Origin: Pseudomonas antarctica
GTDB taxonomy: Bacteria > Pseudomonadota > Gammaproteobacteria > Pseudomonadales > Pseudomonadaceae
Direction of reading: 5' to 3'
Assembly: GCF_900624995.1 (NCBI RefSeq)
Contig: NZ_UYXQ01000005.1
Location: forward strand, 1-64,000
Length of the DNA stretch: 64,000 nucleotides
Positions within the stretch are counted from its first letter, which is position 1. Each line of letters starts with the position of its first letter. The translations under genes and the position numbers were made by a program. The notes beneath the pieces were generated by a model. That model was not told the origin of the DNA and did not search any database. It worked only from the letters and a program-made list of their open reading frames with translations. Shown one piece after another: positions 752 through 48,335 of the stretch.

Positions 752-1632
752 AGCGCTTCAGTTTCTCGAGTTTTATGCTGGTGGCGGGGTTGTTGTTTAT
801 CTACCTGCCGATGCTGATACTGGTGATCTACTCGTTCAACGAATCCAAGCTGGTGACGGTGTGGGGCGGTTGGTCGATCAAGTGGTACGTGGGCCTGTTG
901 GACAACACCCAACTGATGGGCTCGGTGGCCCGCTCCCTGGAAATCGCCTGCTACACGGCGGTGGCCGCCGTGGCGCTGGGTACGTTGGCGGCGTTCGTGC
1001 TGACGCGCATCAGCCAGTTCAAGGGCCGCACGCTGTTCGGCGGCTTGGTGACGGCGCCACTGGTAATGCCTGAGGTGATCACCGGTCTGTCGCTGTTGCT
1101 GCTGTTCGTGGCCATGGCGCAGATGATCGGTTGGCCGCAGGAACGTGGCATTGTCACCATCTGGATCGCCCACACCACGTTCTGTGCGGCGTATGTGGCG
1201 GTGGTGGTGTCGGCGCGCTTGCGTGAGCTGGACTTGTCGATCGAAGAAGCGGCCATGGACCTCGGCGCGCGACCGTGGAAGGTGTTCTTCTTGATCACCA
1301 TCCCGATGATCGCGCCGTCGTTGGCGGCGGGCGGCATGATGTCGTTCGCGCTGTCGCTGGATGACCTGGTACTCGCCAGCTTCGTGTCGGGGCCGGGTTC
1401 GACCACCTTGCCGATGGAAGTGTTCTCGGCCGTGCGTCTTGGGGTTAAACCCGAGATCAACGCCGTCGCCAGCCTGATTCTGTTGGCGGTGTCGCTGGTG
1501 ACCTTCCTGGTGTGGTTCTTCAGCCGCCGTGCCGAAGAACATCGCAAGAAGGCCATTCAGCAAGCGATTGAAGAGGCCGCGGCGGATGGCTGGCAGCAGC
1601 CGGACAAGCGCCGGGCGGCTGCACCGGTTTAA
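748..1632 (+). CDS. potI: Polyamine ABC transporter permease PotI/SpuH
   Basis: Second permease subunit of the polyamine importer, 294 residues, the usual size for PotI. It has a hydrophobic N-terminal segment (about residues 10-30) and further membrane segments. The EAA loop reads EEAAMDLGARPWKVFF near residue 170. It starts with ATGA overlapping the potH stop, with GGAGG just upstream. The C-terminus is a charged tail rich in Arg, Lys and Ala. A REP element follows it and no periplasmic binding gene lies downstream, so this is probably the last gene of the operon. Confidence 0.92.
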   Translation: MKRFSFSSFMLVAGLLFIYLPMLILVIYSFNESKLVTVWGGWSIKWYVGLLDNTQLMGSVARSLEIACYTAVAAVALGTLAAFVLTRISQFKGRTLFGGLVTAPLVMPEVITGLSLLLLFVAMAQMIGWPQERGIVTIWIAHTTFCAAYVAVVVSARLRELDLSIEEAAMDLGARPWKVFFLITIPMIAPSLAAGGMMSFALSLDDLVLASFVSGPGSTTLPMEVFSAVRLGVKPEINAVASLILLAVSLVTFLVWFFSRRAEEHRKKAIQQAIEEAAADGWQQPDKRRAAAPV

Positions 1633-27208: not shown

Positions 27209-28459
27209 ATGAACGTCCTTCTGGTCGGCGCCACAGGGTTTGTGGGCCGCCATCTGTTGCGCGCCTTGCAGCACGCCGGGCACTGCGTGATCGCGACCTC
27301 TCGAACGCCTCAACACCAGAGTTGGCCGGGGGTTGAGTGGCGTTCGCTGGACCTGGGCCGCCTGGCTGTCGACCCCGAGCACTTTGTCTTTCCTGAATCT
27401 GTTGATGTATTGATCAATGCGGCGGGCCTGCTCAGCGTGGATGCGGCTGAGTTGAGCCGGGTTCAGGATCAAGGCGCTCGCGTGTTGTTTGATCTGGCCG
27501 CCCAGCGTGGCGTGCGGGTGTTGCAGATTTCCGCCTTGGGCGCTTCGGCGCAATCCGACCTGGCGTTCCTGGCCAGCAAAGGCTTGGCGGATGATTATCT
27601 GCTCAGTCTGGGCATAACCGCTGTGGTGCTTCGGCCTTCATTGGTGGTGGGCGCGGGCGGCACCAGCAGTGCGTGGCTGGCCGGGCTTTCGCCTTGGCCG
27701 CTGATTCCGCTGCTCGACCTCAAGGCCCAAGTGCAGCCCGTGCATATCGACGATCTGGTCGGTGCGGTAATGGCCCTGCTGCGCCAGTGGCCTGCTGAAT
27801 CAATGGTGCTGCCGTTGGTGGGGCCCGAGCCGATGCGGCTGTCGCAGGTCGTTGACCACCTGCGCGCGGCTCAAGGCTGGGAGGCGGGCCGCTACGTGCA
27901 AGTGCCGCTGCTGAGGTTGGGCGGTTGGCTGGGTGATCGCCTGGGCTGGCAGGCTTTGAACCGACAAAGTATCGCCCTGGCGCAACAGGACAATGTGGCC
28001 GACCCCGAGGTACTGGCCTCGGTTTGCGGTTATACCGTCGCGCCGCTGGCGTCGCGCCTGCACGATTGGCCGAACGCAGCCATCAGCAGCCAGCGCACTC
28101 TGCGCCCAGTGATGCTGGCGGTGATGGTGCTGATCTGGCTGGGCACCGCAGCCGTTTGCCTCGGTCAGGGTTACGACTGGGGCCTGCGCATCATGGCCGA
28201 GGCGGGCGTGCACGGCACGTGGGCGACACTGGCCGTGATCGGCGGCTCGGTCTGCGATGCGCTGTTGGGTTTAGGGTTGCTGGTGACGCGTTGGCGCAGG
28301 CAGGCCCTGATCCTGCAATTGCTGCTGATGGCCGGTTACACCGTGTTTATCAGCCTGGTTCTGCCCCATTACTGGTTTGACCCTTATGCCGCCGTCGCCA
28401 AGAACCTGGTGCTGATGGTGGCGACTGTGTGGCTTCTATGGACTGAACCTCATCAATGA
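27209..28459 (+). CDS. SDR-family NAD(P)-binding protein with C-terminal DoxX-like membrane domain
   Basis: Fusion protein of 416 residues. Residues 1-290 are an atypical extended SDR (NmrA-like) with the nucleotide loop LLVGATGFVGRHLLRAL at residues 4-20. Residues 295-416 are a DoxX-like domain of four predicted helices (LAVMVLIWLGTAAVCLG onward). The fusion would tether an NAD(P)-dependent enzyme to the membrane. It is flanked by two DUF2269 membrane proteins in the same operon; its 3' end overlaps the next start by 4 bp. Substrate unknown. Confidence 0.8.
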   Translation: MNVLLVGATGFVGRHLLRALQHAGHCVIATSRTPQHQSWPGVEWRSLDLGRLAVDPEHFVFPESVDVLINAAGLLSVDAAELSRVQDQGARVLFDLAAQRGVRVLQISALGASAQSDLAFLASKGLADDYLLSLGITAVVLRPSLVVGAGGTSSAWLAGLSPWPLIPLLDLKAQVQPVHIDDLVGAVMALLRQWPAESMVLPLVGPEPMRLSQVVDHLRAAQGWEAGRYVQVPLLRLGGWLGDRLGWQALNRQSIALAQQDNVADPEVLASVCGYTVAPLASRLHDWPNAAISSQRTLRPVMLAVMVLIWLGTAAVCLGQGYDWGLRIMAEAGVHGTWATLAVIGGSVCDALLGLGLLVTRWRRQALILQLLLMAGYTVFISLVLPHYWFDPYAAVAKNLVLMVATVWLLWTEPHQ

Positions 28460-28923
28460 GCGCTTACCTGCTGCTGAAAACCCTGCATATCCTGTCCTCG
28501 ACCATTCTATTCGGGTTGGGCGCGGGCTCGGCTTACTATGCCTTGCGCGCCTGGCGCAGTGGCAAGGTTGAAGTCATCGCCGAGACGTTCAAGCACTTGG
28601 TGTTCGCCGACTGGGCGTTTACCGCAACCACGGCGGTGTTCCAGCCCTTAAGCGGGGTCGGCTTGATGCACTTGGCGGGTTGGTCGATGCAGCAGAGCTG
28701 GCTGCAATGGACCGTCGGCCTGTATTGCCTGGCCGGGGTTTGCTGGCTGCCGGTGGTGTGGTTGCAGATTCGTGTGCACAAGATGGCGGAGCAGGCGTTG
28801 CGCGACGGCACGGCGATGCCGATCAAGGCGGCGACCTATATGCGCTGGTGGTTTGGCCTGGGCTGGCCGGCGTTTTTGGCGTTTATGGTGATTTTCTATT
28901 TGATGGTGGCTAAGCCGATGTAG
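28456..28923 (+). CDS. DUF2269 family membrane protein (second copy)
   Basis: Integral membrane protein of 155 residues with four predicted helices, beginning LLKTLHILSSTILFGLGAG, which carries a helix-1 histidine as the first copy does (KVIHIT). It is coupled to the SDR-DoxX gene by an ATGA overlap. Conserved helix-1 His residues in this family might bind heme or metal, but that is speculative. It is somewhat longer than the first copy. Confidence 0.77.
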   Translation: MSAYLLLKTLHILSSTILFGLGAGSAYYALRAWRSGKVEVIAETFKHLVFADWAFTATTAVFQPLSGVGLMHLAGWSMQQSWLQWTVGLYCLAGVCWLPVVWLQIRVHKMAEQALRDGTAMPIKAATYMRWWFGLGWPAFLAFMVIFYLMVAKPM

Positions 28924-44519: not shown

Positions 44520-45109
44520 ACAAAGAGCAGGTGATTGCCGAACTATTCGCTTTGTACGAGCAGCACGGCACGGCCGATTACATCGGCGAGCCGTTGTCGC
44601 AGCTCGAGCATATGTCCCAGGCCGCGCAGTTGGCGATGGCGGAAGGCTTTGATGATGAAGTGGTCCTGGCGGCGTTTTTCCACGACATTGGCCACCTCTG
44701 CGGCCAGGGCGGCGAGAACATGGCTGGTTATGGTGTGGTCAGCCACGAGCGCCTGGGCGCGGACTATTTACGCCGCGCGGGCTTCAGCGAACGCATGGCC
44801 AAACTGGTGGAGTATCACGTGCAAGCCAAGCGCTACCTGACCTTCACCCAGCCGGACTATTACGCCCACCTGAGCGAGGCCAGCCGCCACACCCTGGGTT
44901 ACCAGGGCGGCGTGATGACGGCTGAAGACGCTCACGCCTTCGAGCAAGACCCGCTCTGCCAGGTCAGCCTGCGCATGCGTCACTGGGATGAGCAGGCCAA
45001 GGACATGCACGCCCCGGTGCTGGATCTTGAGCCGTTGAAAGCAATGGCACACCGTCTGCTGATCGCCGGTAGCGTGAATTCATACACGCAGCCCGGAAGC
45101 GGCGGCTAG
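44516..45109 (+). CDS. PhnZ-like HD-domain mixed-valent diiron oxygenase (phosphonate cleavage)
   Basis: Soluble HD-fold protein of 197 residues. Compared with PhnZ, whose ligands I recall as H34, H58, D59, H80, H104, D161 plus substrate residues Y24 and E27, this protein has Tyr22, Glu25, His32, His56-Asp57, His77, His101 and Asp158 at matching spacing (DYIGEPLSQLEH, FFHDIGHL, YHVQAK). It should therefore oxidatively cleave a hydroxylated phosphonate C-P bond. A PhnY-type hydroxylase gene is missing nearby. Coupled to the FAD gene upstream. Confidence 0.82.
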   Translation: MNKEQVIAELFALYEQHGTADYIGEPLSQLEHMSQAAQLAMAEGFDDEVVLAAFFHDIGHLCGQGGENMAGYGVVSHERLGADYLRRAGFSERMAKLVEYHVQAKRYLTFTQPDYYAHLSEASRHTLGYQGGVMTAEDAHAFEQDPLCQVSLRMRHWDEQAKDMHAPVLDLEPLKAMAHRLLIAGSVNSYTQPGSGG

Positions 45110-45168
45110 CGAGGTTTTCGTCTGGCTCATTACTCTCATGCGACTTCAGCCACGCAAGAGAGCATGTG

Positions 45169-45759
45169 ATGCGTTACTTGAAAGCGACCGCCCAGGATCG
45201 CAGCGGCAATGGTATGGCCGACACGGTCATTCTGCATTTTTATGAGCGCCACTCCGCTGGCGTTGACGAGTTAGTTCATGAAGCTGTGGCAGTGGATATG
45301 GATGCCGATGAGGTCGTGGACTTTCAGTTCGCCGGTGACATCAACGGTGACGGCAAAAGTGATGTCCTTGATAGCTGGTTGCTCAAGGCGTTTGCCAATA
45401 CGTTCTTGAAACTGAACTGGTTTAACGACGGCGAGCGTTGGCGGCGCACGCTGGCCATCGTCGCGATTCAGAACGAGGCAAAAGACCCTCCCAGCGGCGT
45501 GCAGTTGAATTTCCTGGACCGCCGCAGCCCGCTGCGCAAACCCATACTGGCCTACCAGGCCGCCGGCGACGATGCCGACGATAACGGCGTATTGGAGTCA
45601 TTCAGCGCTACCGATGTAGACCGAAACGGTGTCGCTGACAAAACCGACAAAGCGCTAATCCGATCCATGTGTAACACCTTTCTCGCGCTCAAATGGTATG
45701 ACCAGGCTCGTCCGACTGTGAGTGAGCGCAAACCAGGAGTAGATCAATGCGTTATTTGA
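45169..45759 (+). CDS. Tandem calcium-loop repeat protein, copy 1 (unknown family)
   Basis: I do not recognise this family. 196 residues, no signal peptide or membrane helix. It consists of two modules of about 85-90 residues. Module 1 starts MRYLKATAQDRSGNGMADTV and has an acidic loop DMDADEVVDF then GDINGDGKSDVLDSWLLK, a dockerin/EF-hand-like DxNxDGxxxxxD loop followed by a helix ending LKLNWFN. Module 2 repeats this (DDADDNGVLESF; DVDRNGVADKTDKALI; LALKWYD). Four candidate Ca loops. ATG 45169 is preceded by AAGAGAGC. Its last 13 bp overlap the start of copy 2. Confidence 0.8.
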   Translation: MRYLKATAQDRSGNGMADTVILHFYERHSAGVDELVHEAVAVDMDADEVVDFQFAGDINGDGKSDVLDSWLLKAFANTFLKLNWFNDGERWRRTLAIVAIQNEAKDPPSGVQLNFLDRRSPLRKPILAYQAAGDDADDNGVLESFSATDVDRNGVADKTDKALIRSMCNTFLALKWYDQARPTVSERKPGVDQCVI

Positions 45760-46322
45760 AAATTTTCGCCCAGGACCGAACAGGGGCTGGCCAGGCGGAT
45801 ACTGTATTGCTTCAGTTCTACCAGAGCACCCCTGGTATTCAAGACAGCTTGATCAGTCACGCTGTGGCGTACGACTTCCCGACTGATGGGGAAATCGACT
45901 ACAGCAGAGGGGATGTGACGAATGATGGTCGGGAAACCCGCCTCGATAAAGTGTTGTTGGACAGGTTTGCCGCTGCCTATTTGAAGCTCAACTGGTTTAA
46001 CCCAGGGACTGCCTCAACGCGCCACATGAAGATTTTTTCCGAAGACTTCTACAAGGACGGCACACCCGACACCGTGCGTCTGCACGTGCAAGAAGGGGCG
46101 GGCGTTATTAACCCACCCACGCTGGTCGCCTGGAACGCCGCTTATGACTTTGATAACGACGGAATGCTCGAATGGAACATTCATTTCGATATCAACCATG
46201 ATGGCGTGATCGACGACGTTGACCAGCGTTTGGTCCAGCAGTTGGCTGAGCTCTATCTGCTGTTCAATTGGCACGAGCCTGAAGCCTTTGAGGTCAAGGT
46301 CGTCGATATCCCGGCTTCGTGA
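45747..46322 (+). CDS. Tandem calcium-loop repeat protein, copy 2 (unknown family)
   Basis: Paralog of the upstream gene, 191 residues, two modules. Module 1: MRYLKIFAQDRTGAGQADTV, loop DFPTDGEIDY, loop DVTNDGRETRLDKVLL, end LKLNWFN. Module 2: RHMKIFSEDFYKDGTPDTV, loop DFDNDGMLEW, loop DINHDGVIDDVDQRLV, end LLFNWHE. This is the best preserved copy, with canonical DxDxDG spacing. No signal peptide. Ribosome site CAGGAG at the correct distance. It overlaps copy 1 and so is translationally coupled to it. Confidence 0.8.
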   Translation: MRYLKIFAQDRTGAGQADTVLLQFYQSTPGIQDSLISHAVAYDFPTDGEIDYSRGDVTNDGRETRLDKVLLDRFAAAYLKLNWFNPGTASTRHMKIFSEDFYKDGTPDTVRLHVQEGAGVINPPTLVAWNAAYDFDNDGMLEWNIHFDINHDGVIDDVDQRLVQQLAELYLLFNWHEPEAFEVKVVDIPAS

Positions 46323-46382
46323 ACGGTGAATGTTCGCCTGTCGTCGTTTCTTACTTGATGTGGCGCCAGTAGTACCTGTGAT

Positions 46383-46421
46383 CAGGCCCTGGACAGAACT
46401 ATGTTGGGGGCCTGGTTTTTT
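46383..46421 (+). terminator. Terminator-like hairpin between copies 2 and 3
   Basis: CAGGCCC (46383-46389) pairs with GGGCCTG (46408-46414) around an 18-nt loop; GTTTTTT follows (46415-46421). It ends 15 nt before the start codon of copy 3, so it could attenuate that gene. Confidence 0.6.
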
Positions 46422-46436
46422 ACTGAGGCAGTACCT

Positions 46437-46964
46437 ATGCGTTATTTGAAAGTGGTCGTGCAAGATCGTAGGCAAGAGGGCCAGGCAGACACGGTGAAGC
46501 TCAACTTTTTTCAACGAGACCCGGATCTACCCGACGAATTGGTACACGAAGCCGTGGCGTTGGACAGGACGGCTGATGGCGCGGTGGACTTTCAGTCGAC
46601 CGGGGACATTGATTTTGACGGGGCGACTACGCTCAAGGATCGGCGGTTGCTCAAAAACTTTGCCAACCAGGCACTGAAGCTCAGCTGGTCTAATAAAGGT
46701 GAGGTCGCAGCTCGTTCAATCGACCTGTATGTCAGTCGTTTCAATAAAGCGGGTATGGCCGTGGAGGTTCGAACGGATTTTTATCAGCACAAGAATTCGG
46801 CAGGCAAAGACGAGTTGGTGCACAGCACCACGGCCAGTGACCACAATGGCGCCGGTATTTTGCAGCCCTCTGGGCATGACGATCAGTGTGAACTGTTCGA
46901 TACCGTAGACGAAAAAGCCATCCTCGCCTTGAGCAAGTTGTACCTGGAATTCAACTGGCACTGA
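46437..46964 (+). CDS. Tandem calcium-loop repeat protein, copy 3 (unknown family, C-terminal loops eroded)
   Basis: Third paralog, 175 residues. The N-terminus MRYLKVVVQDRRQEGQADTV and the phrase PDELVHEAVALDRTADGAVDF are nearly those of copy 1. Loop GDIDFDGATTLKDRRLLK is intact, ending LKLSWSN. In the second module the loops are damaged (SDHNGAGIL; DDQCELFDTVDEK), though the helix end LYLEFNWH remains. Preceded by GAGG. The DNA of the first five codons matches copy 2 exactly (ATGCGTTATTTGAAA), suggesting recent duplication. No signal peptide. Confidence 0.8.
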   Translation: MRYLKVVVQDRRQEGQADTVKLNFFQRDPDLPDELVHEAVALDRTADGAVDFQSTGDIDFDGATTLKDRRLLKNFANQALKLSWSNKGEVAARSIDLYVSRFNKAGMAVEVRTDFYQHKNSAGKDELVHSTTASDHNGAGILQPSGHDDQCELFDTVDEKAILALSKLYLEFNWH

Positions 46965-46967
46965 GCA

Positions 46968-48335
46968 TCAATCATCCTTGAGTTCCTGCGCCAACGCTTG
47001 AATCTGCTCCTGGCGTTCGGTCTGGCTCAGCTTCGGCTGCGGGTTCAGGGACGACCATTGCGGATAGGCGCGGGCCTTGTTCAACGCATCCGGCAACTTG
47101 CCTTCACGCCAGGTTTTGTCCTGAGGCGTGTCGACTTTGATGCTGTGCATCGCCGCATGCCCGCGTAGGTTCAGGGCCTTGAGCAATTGGCGTTGGCGCA
47201 AGGCGAGCAGGCGCAACACGCTGTCGTCGACGGTCAGCTCGCGGTGGCCCTTGAGCTTGCCCAACAGGCGGCTGCCATAGCTGCGCGCGGTTTGCAGCGC
47301 ACCACCGGCAATCGCACCGGCAATCGCGGCAGCGCCGAGGGTCAGGCCGCCGACCAGCAAGTCCACACCGGCACCGGCAGCTGCGCCTGCAGCAATGCCG
47401 CCACCGACGCGCACGCCGAGCTGTTTGAGGGTTTGCGGGTTGAACAGGTCATCGCCCCAGCGGCCGTCCAGCAGCGGCAAGTCGCTGGCGGCGGCATCCT
47501 GTGGGCGAAAGCCGAACAGTTTGAGCAGGGCATCCACGCATTTTTGCTCGCGTTGGCGTACCGCTTTGCGCAAGTCGCTGATCGCTTGCTGTTCGTCTTC
47601 GGTGACCACGCTGCGTCGGCATGCGGCGCAGTCGATCAACAGCTCGGCGATCAACCGCGCGGCGCTTTGCTGGCGGGCCTGGCGTTGGGCCTCCTGGTCA
47701 AGAATCAAACGCTCCAACTGCGGCCGCGCGTTCTCCAGCAGCAGGGCCAGGCTTTCATACAGGCGGCGCTCACCGTCTTGCAGCGGCGCTACGCTGTCGA
47801 AGCGCACCAGCGCGTGCAGGCCGAGGCGGGCCAAGGCTTCGCGCCAGTCCGGCTCGCGGTGGTCGCTGCTGCTGACGAAGTTGAGCACTGGCAACAACGG
47901 CTTGCCGCAACTGGCGAGCACTTGCAGCTCGTCGCGGTACTTGGCGAGCACCGGCTCGCGGGCGTCGATCACATACAGGCCAGCGTCGGAGGCCAGTAAC
48001 TGGCGCAGCACCTTGGCTTCCTGTTCGAAACGCTGACGCGCCTCGCTGCCTTCCAGGAACCGCGCCAAGCGTGCCGGGCCGTCGAGACGTTCGCCGGGGC
48101 GGTCCAGGCGCTCCAGGTAATCAAGCAGGGCGATGGCGTCTTCCAGGCCGGGCGTGTCGTACAGCTCCAGCAAGGCTTCGCCATCGACCGATAAGCGTGC
48201 ACCCTCGACATGCCGCGTGGTGCTGGGGCGATGGGACACGTCGCCGAAGCCGACATCCCGCGTCAGCGTACGCAGCAGTGAAGTCTTGCCGACATTGGTG
48301 TGGCCGACCACGGCGAGTTTCAGCGGTTTAGTCAT
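46968..48335 (-). CDS. Era/TrmE-type GTPase with DUF3482 domain
   Basis: P-loop GTPase of 455 residues. G1 is VVGHTNVGKTSL (11-20), G3 is LYDTPGLED, and the G4-like region is VLNFVSSSD, a variant of NKxD. After the G domain, an amphipathic helical region and a glycine/alanine-rich hydrophobic stretch (about 310-370) suggest membrane contact. The gene overlaps by 8 bp with the DUF2868 membrane protein upstream, so the two form an operon and probably a complex. Function unknown. Confidence 0.82.
   Translation of the reverse strand: MTKPLKLAVVGHTNVGKTSLLRTLTRDVGFGDVSHRPSTTRHVEGARLSVDGEALLELYDTPGLEDAIALLDYLERLDRPGERLDGPARLARFLEGSEARQRFEQEAKVLRQLLASDAGLYVIDAREPVLAKYRDELQVLASCGKPLLPVLNFVSSSDHREPDWREALARLGLHALVRFDSVAPLQDGERRLYESLALLLENARPQLERLILDQEAQRQARQQSAARLIAELLIDCAACRRSVVTEDEQQAISDLRKAVRQREQKCVDALLKLFGFRPQDAAASDLPLLDGRWGDDLFNPQTLKQLGVRVGGGIAAGAAAGAGVDLLVGGLTLGAAAIAGAIAGGALQTARSYGSRLLGKLKGHRELTVDDSVLRLLALRQRQLLKALNLRGHAAMHSIKVDTPQDKTWREGKLPDALNKARAYPQWSSLNPQPKLSQTERQEQIQALAQELKDD

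What the first reader, a model, noticed from the sequence alone, without database searches (positions are those of the whole stretch)
45169..46964. Three tandem paralogs of an unrecognised protein family built from paired calcium-loop modules
All three proteins open with MRYLK...QDR...G.ADTV and contain two modules of about 85-90 residues. Each module has an acidic loop (for example DFDNDGMLEW) followed by a dockerin/EF-hand-like loop (DINGDGKSDVLD, DINHDGVIDDVD) and a short helix ending L.L.W. Copies 1 and 2 therefore offer four possible Ca sites each. None has a signal peptide, cohesin partner or RTX tail, so location and role are open. They lie directly downstream of the phosphonate operon and upstream of an unrelated GTPase pair. 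I know of no named family that fits.
Basis: partly seen in the sequence, partly recalled or inferred. Interest (0 to 1): 0.78.

Follow-up and report, generated by a model that had tools for sequence, protein, structure and literature searches.

The report
Pseudomonas-only tandem calcium-loop protein family
Three neighbouring genes encode members of an undescribed protein family, found here only in Pseudomonas, in which a small sheet-and-helix unit carrying calcium-type loops is duplicated inside each protein; its job in the cell is not known.

Summary
Three tandem ORFs (45169-45759, 45747-46322, 46437-46964) are paralogs of two ~88-residue modules; calcium-type loops far exceed shuffles, and relatives show purifying selection (median dN/dS 0.17). 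No curated family explains them; Pfam gives only loop-level Dockerin_1/FG-GAP hits. Relatives of this two-module or shortened form occur in 76 of 398 sampled genomes of the genus (6 more match weakly) and in no other genus sampled; single-module relatives of 81-102 aa exist too. AlphaFold2 is confident (pLDDT 92.8): each module is four strands and a helix, the dockerin-type loop leading into the helix. Architecture excludes a dockerin and an EF-hand. The paralogs are old: each window copy groups with array members of other species. Of 75 relatives 72 keep at least one module with both main loops, not always the same one. The phosphonate neighbourhood is positional only. Most likely these are signal-less proteins whose fold is set by calcium; sensor, buffer or exported domain is unresolved. 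A leader shared across unlinked sites, and an excess of hairpins over ribosome-binding sites, suggest own-promoter, restrained expression.

The parts
45169..45759 (+). copy 1, 196 aa, two modules; loops i1, iii1, ii2, iii2 intact by pattern
45747..46322 (+). copy 2, 191 aa, two modules; loops ii1, iii1, i2, ii2, iii2 intact by pattern; structure predicted
46437..46964 (+). copy 3, 175 aa; N module keeps loops ii1 and iii1, C module has lost all three; member of a cross-species clade with the same loss
45337..45372 (+). copy 1 dockerin-type loop, module 1 (DINGDGKSDVLD)
   Evidence: sequence
45613..45648 (+). copy 1 dockerin-type loop, module 2 (DVDRNGVADKTD)
   Evidence: sequence
45912..45947 (+). 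copy 2 dockerin-type loop, module 1 (DVTNDGRETRLD; Thr at position 3, so it misses the stricter pattern)
   Evidence: sequence
46188..46223 (+). copy 2 dockerin-type loop, module 2 (DINHDGVIDDVD)
   Evidence: sequence
46605..46640 (+). copy 3 dockerin-type loop, module 1 (DIDFDGATTLKD)
   Evidence: sequence
45060..45176 (+). conserved leader of the array (matches leader model R1, E 7.2e-7; the window leaders are among the 30 rows the model was built from)
45127..45169 (+). predicted hairpin over the ribosome-binding site of copy 1 (z -2.1; the same test gives z 0.5 for copy 2 and 0.0 for copy 3)
46335..46445 (+). second leader, in front of copy 3 (R1, E 2.0e-5; same caveat)
46380..46421 (+). 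terminator-like hairpin followed by six T, between copies 2 and 3
   Evidence: z -2.7 for the 93-nt stretch

Best explanation
A genus-level protein family whose unit is a beta4-alpha domain with three Dx.xDG-type loops; two units in one chain form one body. SHOWN by computation: the duplication, loop enrichment, purifying selection, confident predicted fold, restriction to Pseudomonas in what was sampled, old tandem subfamilies, near-universal retention of one loop-competent module. INFERRED: calcium occupies loops ii and iii (perhaps i), ordering the hairpin turns and the start of the helix, so the protein is fully folded or active only when loaded; one module can lose its sites and persist as a structural partner. 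INFERRED, weaker: with no export signal the proteins act in the cytoplasm as calcium-responsive binding or buffering proteins, made from their own promoter and, for some members, held back by a hairpin over the ribosome-binding site until a signal arrives; array members have divided the work.
For: Loops far above shuffles. 72 of 75 relatives keep loops ii and iii together in at least one module: 20 in both, 36 in C only, 16 in N only, 3 in neither. Median dN/dS 0.17, max 0.41 over 123 (not independent) pairs above 65% identity. AlphaFold2 pLDDT 92.8, pTM 0.87 for copy 2; the first module alone 94.1, pTM 0.82. Single-module relatives exist. Copies 1, 2 and 3 each fall in a supported cross-species clade. 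Cys in 63 of 75 (mean 1.56), unlike what I recall of type I-secreted RTX proteins. Leader motif shared by genes at unlinked sites; hairpin excess over control starts, p 0.0017.
Against: No binding data and no coordinates of the model. Cytoplasmic free calcium is normally too low for many such loops (general knowledge). In 52 of 75 only one module keeps ii and iii, and in 3 neither does, so no single site is essential. Hairpin: median z only -0.42; by the 70% figure 13 of 44 starts fail my SD test; controls are 47 starts of 5 gene kinds; copies 2 and 3 show none; RNAalifold finds no consensus structure. Localisation is unmeasured.
Confidence: 0.4

Rival explanations
1. Exported without a Sec signal (type I, type VI or another route): an extracellular calcium-stabilised domain, where calcium is plentiful.
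For: Of the contexts of the Dx[DN]xDG loop, only EF-hand and calcium blade were found inside cells in large numbers (PMC3123361 abstract); the proteins are small and on average acidic (mean pI 5.2, range 4.1-7.1), with no enzyme family matched.
Against: No secretion genes among the neighbours that I named (many neighbours were left unnamed); cysteine in 63 of 75; the N-terminus is strand 1 of the fold.
Confidence: 0.25
2. An orphan immunity-type or defence array: small diversified tandem paralogs that bind and neutralise incoming toxins, with calcium as a structural ion.
For: Tandem and patchy (82 of 398 genomes, 6 of them weak or partial); turnover with fragments and an in-frame stop in the own genome; diversified subfamilies.
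Against: No toxin or effector gene among the neighbours that I named (not a systematic search); PADLOC and PHROGs hits weak and scattered (best 0.0018 and 0.0054); none in phages or plasmids by tblastn of copy 2 or in viral contigs by one peptide pattern; array members behave as long-lived orthologs under purifying selection.
Confidence: 0.1
3. An accessory of 2-aminoethylphosphonate uptake or breakdown, as the last genes of that operon.
For: Same strand, directly after the HD oxygenase gene (TIGR03276) in 49 of 68 named loci by my gene map.
Against: Present at the same site with no gene of the operon found in L026 and L051; 9 of 25 genus genomes have the HD gene in the 1.5 kb beside the GTPase gene but no family member there; 12 of 68 named loci lie elsewhere, with unrelated neighbours; own leader.
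Confidence: 0.05
4. A true dockerin that docks to a cohesin.
For: Dockerin_1 hits in 20 of 75 members at E up to 0.01, best 1.3e-9; copy 2 just over the curated cut-off.
Against: One loop-helix per ~90 residues with four strands before it, not two adjacent repeats; no cohesin in 4 genomes at E up to 0.1.
Confidence: 0.02

Closest known systems
Dockerin type I (PF00404)
   Same: 12-residue loop with ligands at 1, 3, 5, 12 followed by one helix
   Different: Dockerins have two such repeats in tandem within ~60 residues (57-position profile; the rest recalled); here the loops lie 92 residues apart (D56, D148 in copy 2), each behind a four-stranded unit; no cohesin found in 4 genomes
EF-hand (PF00036 and relatives)
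   Same: loop spacing and glycine at position 6
   Different: a strand, not a helix, enters the loop
Calcium blade / FG-GAP (PF01839, PF13517)
   Same: the 9-residue D...DG..D loop, with two residues between motif and last acid, between two strands
   Different: predicted beta4-alpha units, not a propeller
EfhP, the known EF-hand calcium protein of P. aeruginosa (PMC9132961; listing and start of abstract seen)
   Same: a Pseudomonas calcium-binding protein
   Different: two canonical EF-hand motifs by its abstract; not compared by sequence here
MHC class I alpha1/alpha2 platform (arrangement only)
   Same: two beta4-alpha halves; all 50 listed VIA-align rows are, by their titles, of this fold or its mimics, best Z 7.8, rmsd 4.5, 141 aligned
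   Different: 4-13% identity; Z under 8 is within the noise stated by the tool; Foldseek E no better than 0.14; the many PDB entries of this fold inflate the list

Membership tests
Dockerin type I | profile score over the curated cut-off | tested here: inconclusive
   copy 2 scores 23.5 against 22.9, copy 1 16.8, copy 3 no hit; best stretches cover 19-23 of 57 positions
Dockerin type I | two adjacent loop-helix repeats | tested here: not met
   predicted helices 65-81 and 157-172 separated by a four-stranded unit
Dockerin type I | cohesin partner in the genome | tested here: not met
   PF00963: 0 of 4 genomes at E 0.1; the same search rings in 2 of 14 control genomes, over the cut-off in 1
EF-hand | helix-loop-helix | tested here: not met
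   a strand precedes each loop in the models
EF-hand or any calcium protein | binds calcium | not testable with these tools
   ligand pattern only
Dx[DN]xDG loop proteins (convergent class, PMC3123361) | Dx[DN]xDG-type loop followed later by an acidic residue | tested here: met
   counts; class description read in section 5, part 1
FG-GAP / calcium blade propeller | beta-propeller blade | tested here: not met
   two beta4-alpha units predicted
MHC class I platform | clear structural match | tested here: inconclusive
   whole protein Z at most 7.8; half module no Z of 5 or more
2-AEP operon component | co-occurrence with the operon | tested here: not met

The most novel reading that the evidence does not exclude
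A new fold-level home for calcium loops: a duplicated beta4-alpha body arranged like an MHC class I platform, whose ligand-binding face is switched on by calcium inside Pseudomonas cells, expanded into tandem subfamilies as diversified calcium-gated receptors and expressed from a shared stress-type leader also used by a few other genes.
Probability: 0.1. Interest if true: 0.8.

Novelty: new variant of a known kind. Interest (0 to 1): 0.5.

Why it matters
The Dx[DN]xDG loop was counted in 16 structural contexts in 2011 (PMC3123361, section 5); a duplicated beta4-alpha unit carrying up to three per module would be a further one if binding is shown, and one without an export signal. The family is present in many Pseudomonas, is under selection and has no assigned role, so it is a concrete entry to calcium inside bacterial cells. 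The retain-one-module pattern gives a natural series of site losses.

Tried and rejected
Tried with no result: an exact DNA pattern in the own genome (0 matches); phages and plasmids with copy 2 and viral contigs with one peptide pattern (1 stretch, not a relative); PDB by sequence and by Foldseek for the whole protein and the half module (no E under 0.001); BFVD (none under 0.001); Rfam on 18 loci of relatives, not the window (one hit, under its gathering score); sigma-70 and terminator scan (no more than shuffles). In the VIA second look at the half module no row reached Z 5, which does not exclude a known fold.

Rejected: dockerin, EF-hand, propeller blade, phosphonate accessory (see rivals). 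A sigma-S reading of the TAnnnT element in the leader: CTANNNT in 9 of 40 non-redundant leaders against 4.3 in shuffles with a maximum of 10, not enough; TA with T four bases later stands in 33 of 38 rows of a leader alignment, but that column was picked from the alignment. A conserved RNA structure of the leader: RNAalifold gave no pair; the 93-nt leaders have mean z of only -0.69. GacA or RsmA control was only a thought, not tested. Leader as private to the family: of 13 hits of model R1 with E up to 0.003 in 8 genomes, 11 are at family genes and 2 are not: the start of a DUF1375 lipoprotein gene (E 4.8e-5) and of an ATP-grasp-like gene (E 0.0026; function recalled), in one genome each. The model contains the start codon, so ending at a start is partly built in.

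Control mended on re-check: the four shuffles had fewer restarts than the real run. Repeated with equal settings and ten shuffles: 40 leaders, information 7.45 against a maximum of 6.88, but the run settled on the TAGCG element, not TTCCTAC; 29 more distinct leaders, 8.07 against 6.99, motif GAGAATTCCTAC.

Literature: five searches showed no description of this family; they cover open PMC papers only. Of PMC3123361 I saw the abstract and section 5 part 1; of PMC10574481 passages; of all others the listing with the start of the abstract.

Full report
What is there. The window lies in a Pseudomonas genome (my inference: all 68 named relatives are in records titled Pseudomonas, and a contig of the window's genus has the length of a named Pseudomonas contig, 610,726 bases). 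Three ORFs, 196, 191 and 175 aa, follow the last gene of a 2-aminoethylphosphonate operon (TIGR03364 oxidoreductase, TIGR03276 HD oxygenase, PhnS2, PhnU2) and run towards the opposite-strand GTPase gene that ends at 46968 (the names DUF3482 and DUF2868 for the two genes there are recalled). The own genome has two further members on another contig, C34:27561-28091 and 28178-28714, the second with an in-frame TAA after 24 residues.

Distribution. With a profile of 16 members (A1), 82 of 398 genomes of the genus match at E 1e-3 or better. Six of these (G005, G161, G208, G297, G304, G371) match only weakly or over one module, leaving 76 with the two-module family or its 140-aa short form, in which most of the first module's loop region is deleted. 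Outside the genus: 0 of 36 other-genus genomes (copy 2 as query); in the family, 4 of 148 genomes match, all of the window's genus, out of 19 genera; in the class, only the window's own genome among 369, 272 genera. A module-level profile (A5) finds 97 of 249 genus genomes and 4 of 349 across the phylum; three of these are of the window's genus and the fourth is a dockerin-like pair at the end of a long protein. So the family is genus-restricted within these samples.

Architecture. Each module can have three acidic loops: i in the first hairpin (D...[NDS]G..D), ii in the second hairpin (D...DG..D), iii with the dockerin/EF-hand spacing 1-3-5-12 before the helix. Counts against shuffles: 94 against 0.45 and 279 against 4.45. 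Single-module relatives of 81-102 aa occur in other Pseudomonas, three side by side in L148. Two units fused in one frame occur in two named genomes, L047 (382-aa frame) and L052 (446-aa frame; L125 is the same contig by its length). Alignment A2 holds 75 members: the three window copies and 72 of the 81 ORFs; I left out 5 partial or odd-start ORFs, one duplicate (L035) and the fused or fragment frames of L047 and L052. They keep 2 to 6 loops. 72 of 75 keep ii and iii together in at least one module: 20 both, 36 C only, 16 N only, 3 neither. The six rows of copy 3's type all keep only ii1 and iii1; the 22 short forms have lost ii1 and iii1, and all keep iii2.

Fold. AlphaFold2 with A2: mean pLDDT 92.8, pTM 0.87; strands 2-10, 19-28, 31-42, 52-54, helix 65-81, then strands 92-101, 107-116, 125-133, 143-145, helix 157-172. 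Module 1 alone with 33 halves: 94.1, pTM 0.82. Foldseek finds no PDB match under E 0.001 for either. The VIA second look at the whole protein lists, by their titles, MHC class I-type platforms only, Z 6.2 to 7.8: a plausible arrangement of two beta4-alpha halves, but within the tool's stated noise; the half alone reaches at most 4.7. I claim no homology.

Evolution. 123 pairs above 65% identity with dS of 0.02-1.2 have median dN/dS 0.17, maximum 0.41. In a tree of 69 long members, copies 1, 2 and 3 each group with array members of other genomes (copy 2 with L120_7812 and L121_5612, 100/99; copy 1 with L121_6175, 100/94; copy 3 with six others, 100/100), so the tandem paralogs are older than these species; site labels need 6 changes against 18.4 in shuffles. 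Long branches meet in one part, so the deep order is unsure, and L045 was given its site label on a gene-cluster match in a different gene order. Of 68 named loci, 56 are at the folA/GTPase site; the other 12 are near glgP/typA (3), a carboxyltransferase gene (pxpC-like, name recalled) and a VWA/CoxE gene (7), a kup-like gene (1, recalled) and L045. The own C34 pair lies between an EAL/GGDEF gene and a solute-binding protein gene. Arrays reach five genes or fragments (L120, L121), and fragments between genes show turnover. I saw no mobility gene among the neighbours that I named, but named only part of them. The link to the phosphonate operon is positional: L026 and L051 have the family with no gene of the operon found, and 9 of 25 genus genomes have the HD gene in the 1.5 kb beside the GTPase gene but no family member there.

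Expression. Leaders of genes at unlinked sites share sequence. A Gibbs motif (GAAAATTCTTAC) on 40 non-redundant leaders had information 8.6, with 28 of 40 placed at -105 to -87; with a fair control of ten shuffles 29 more distinct leaders gave GAGAATTCCTAC at 8.07 against a maximum of 6.99, 19 of 29 in that zone, while one run on the 40 settled on a second element (7.45 against 6.88). These leaders are partly related by descent, so conservation is shown, function is not. Hairpins over the ribosome-binding site are in excess: mean z -0.92 (median -0.42) in 44 non-redundant starts against +0.19 in 47 control starts of 5 neighbouring gene kinds, Mann-Whitney p 0.0017; SD mostly in a 3' arm in 70% against 34%. 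In the window copy 1 shows it, copies 2 and 3 do not. The pairing register varies and no consensus structure is found. The leader model also marks two other genes in 8 genomes, so it may be a wider promoter class.

Judgement. A real, selected, undescribed family, new as a setting for calcium-type loops, but with no demonstrated ligand, location or phenotype.

Noticed in passing
window 46380-46421: A terminator-like hairpin with six T lies directly before the ribosome-binding site of copy 3, so copy 3 may be transcribed separately or attenuated; the terminator scan allows loops of 3-8 bases only and does not list it.
   Followed up: partly
L148 4025-5217, L170 1426-1728: A third, more distant single-module type (about 100 aa, MS(V/N)YNQRG...) exists; in L148 it stands in tandem with two other single-module genes, near a carbonic-anhydrase-like gene (name recalled).
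   Followed up: partly
L142, L144 and L148, upstream of single-module genes: A dyad CTGTCA....TGACAGTAGAC recurs upstream of four single-module genes (by eye); regulator unknown.
   Followed up: no
L222 about 1503-1604, minus strand: A DUF1375 lipoprotein gene, in a genome with eight family matches, has the family's leader up to its start codon (E 4.8e-5).
   Followed up: partly
L119 8179-8253 (own genome, contig C34): The second distal paralog has an in-frame TAA after 24 residues.
   Followed up: partly
L188, L189, L192, L194, L195, L201 beside the GTPase gene: REP-like palindromes (by eye) fill the intergenic spot in genomes without the family there.
   Followed up: no
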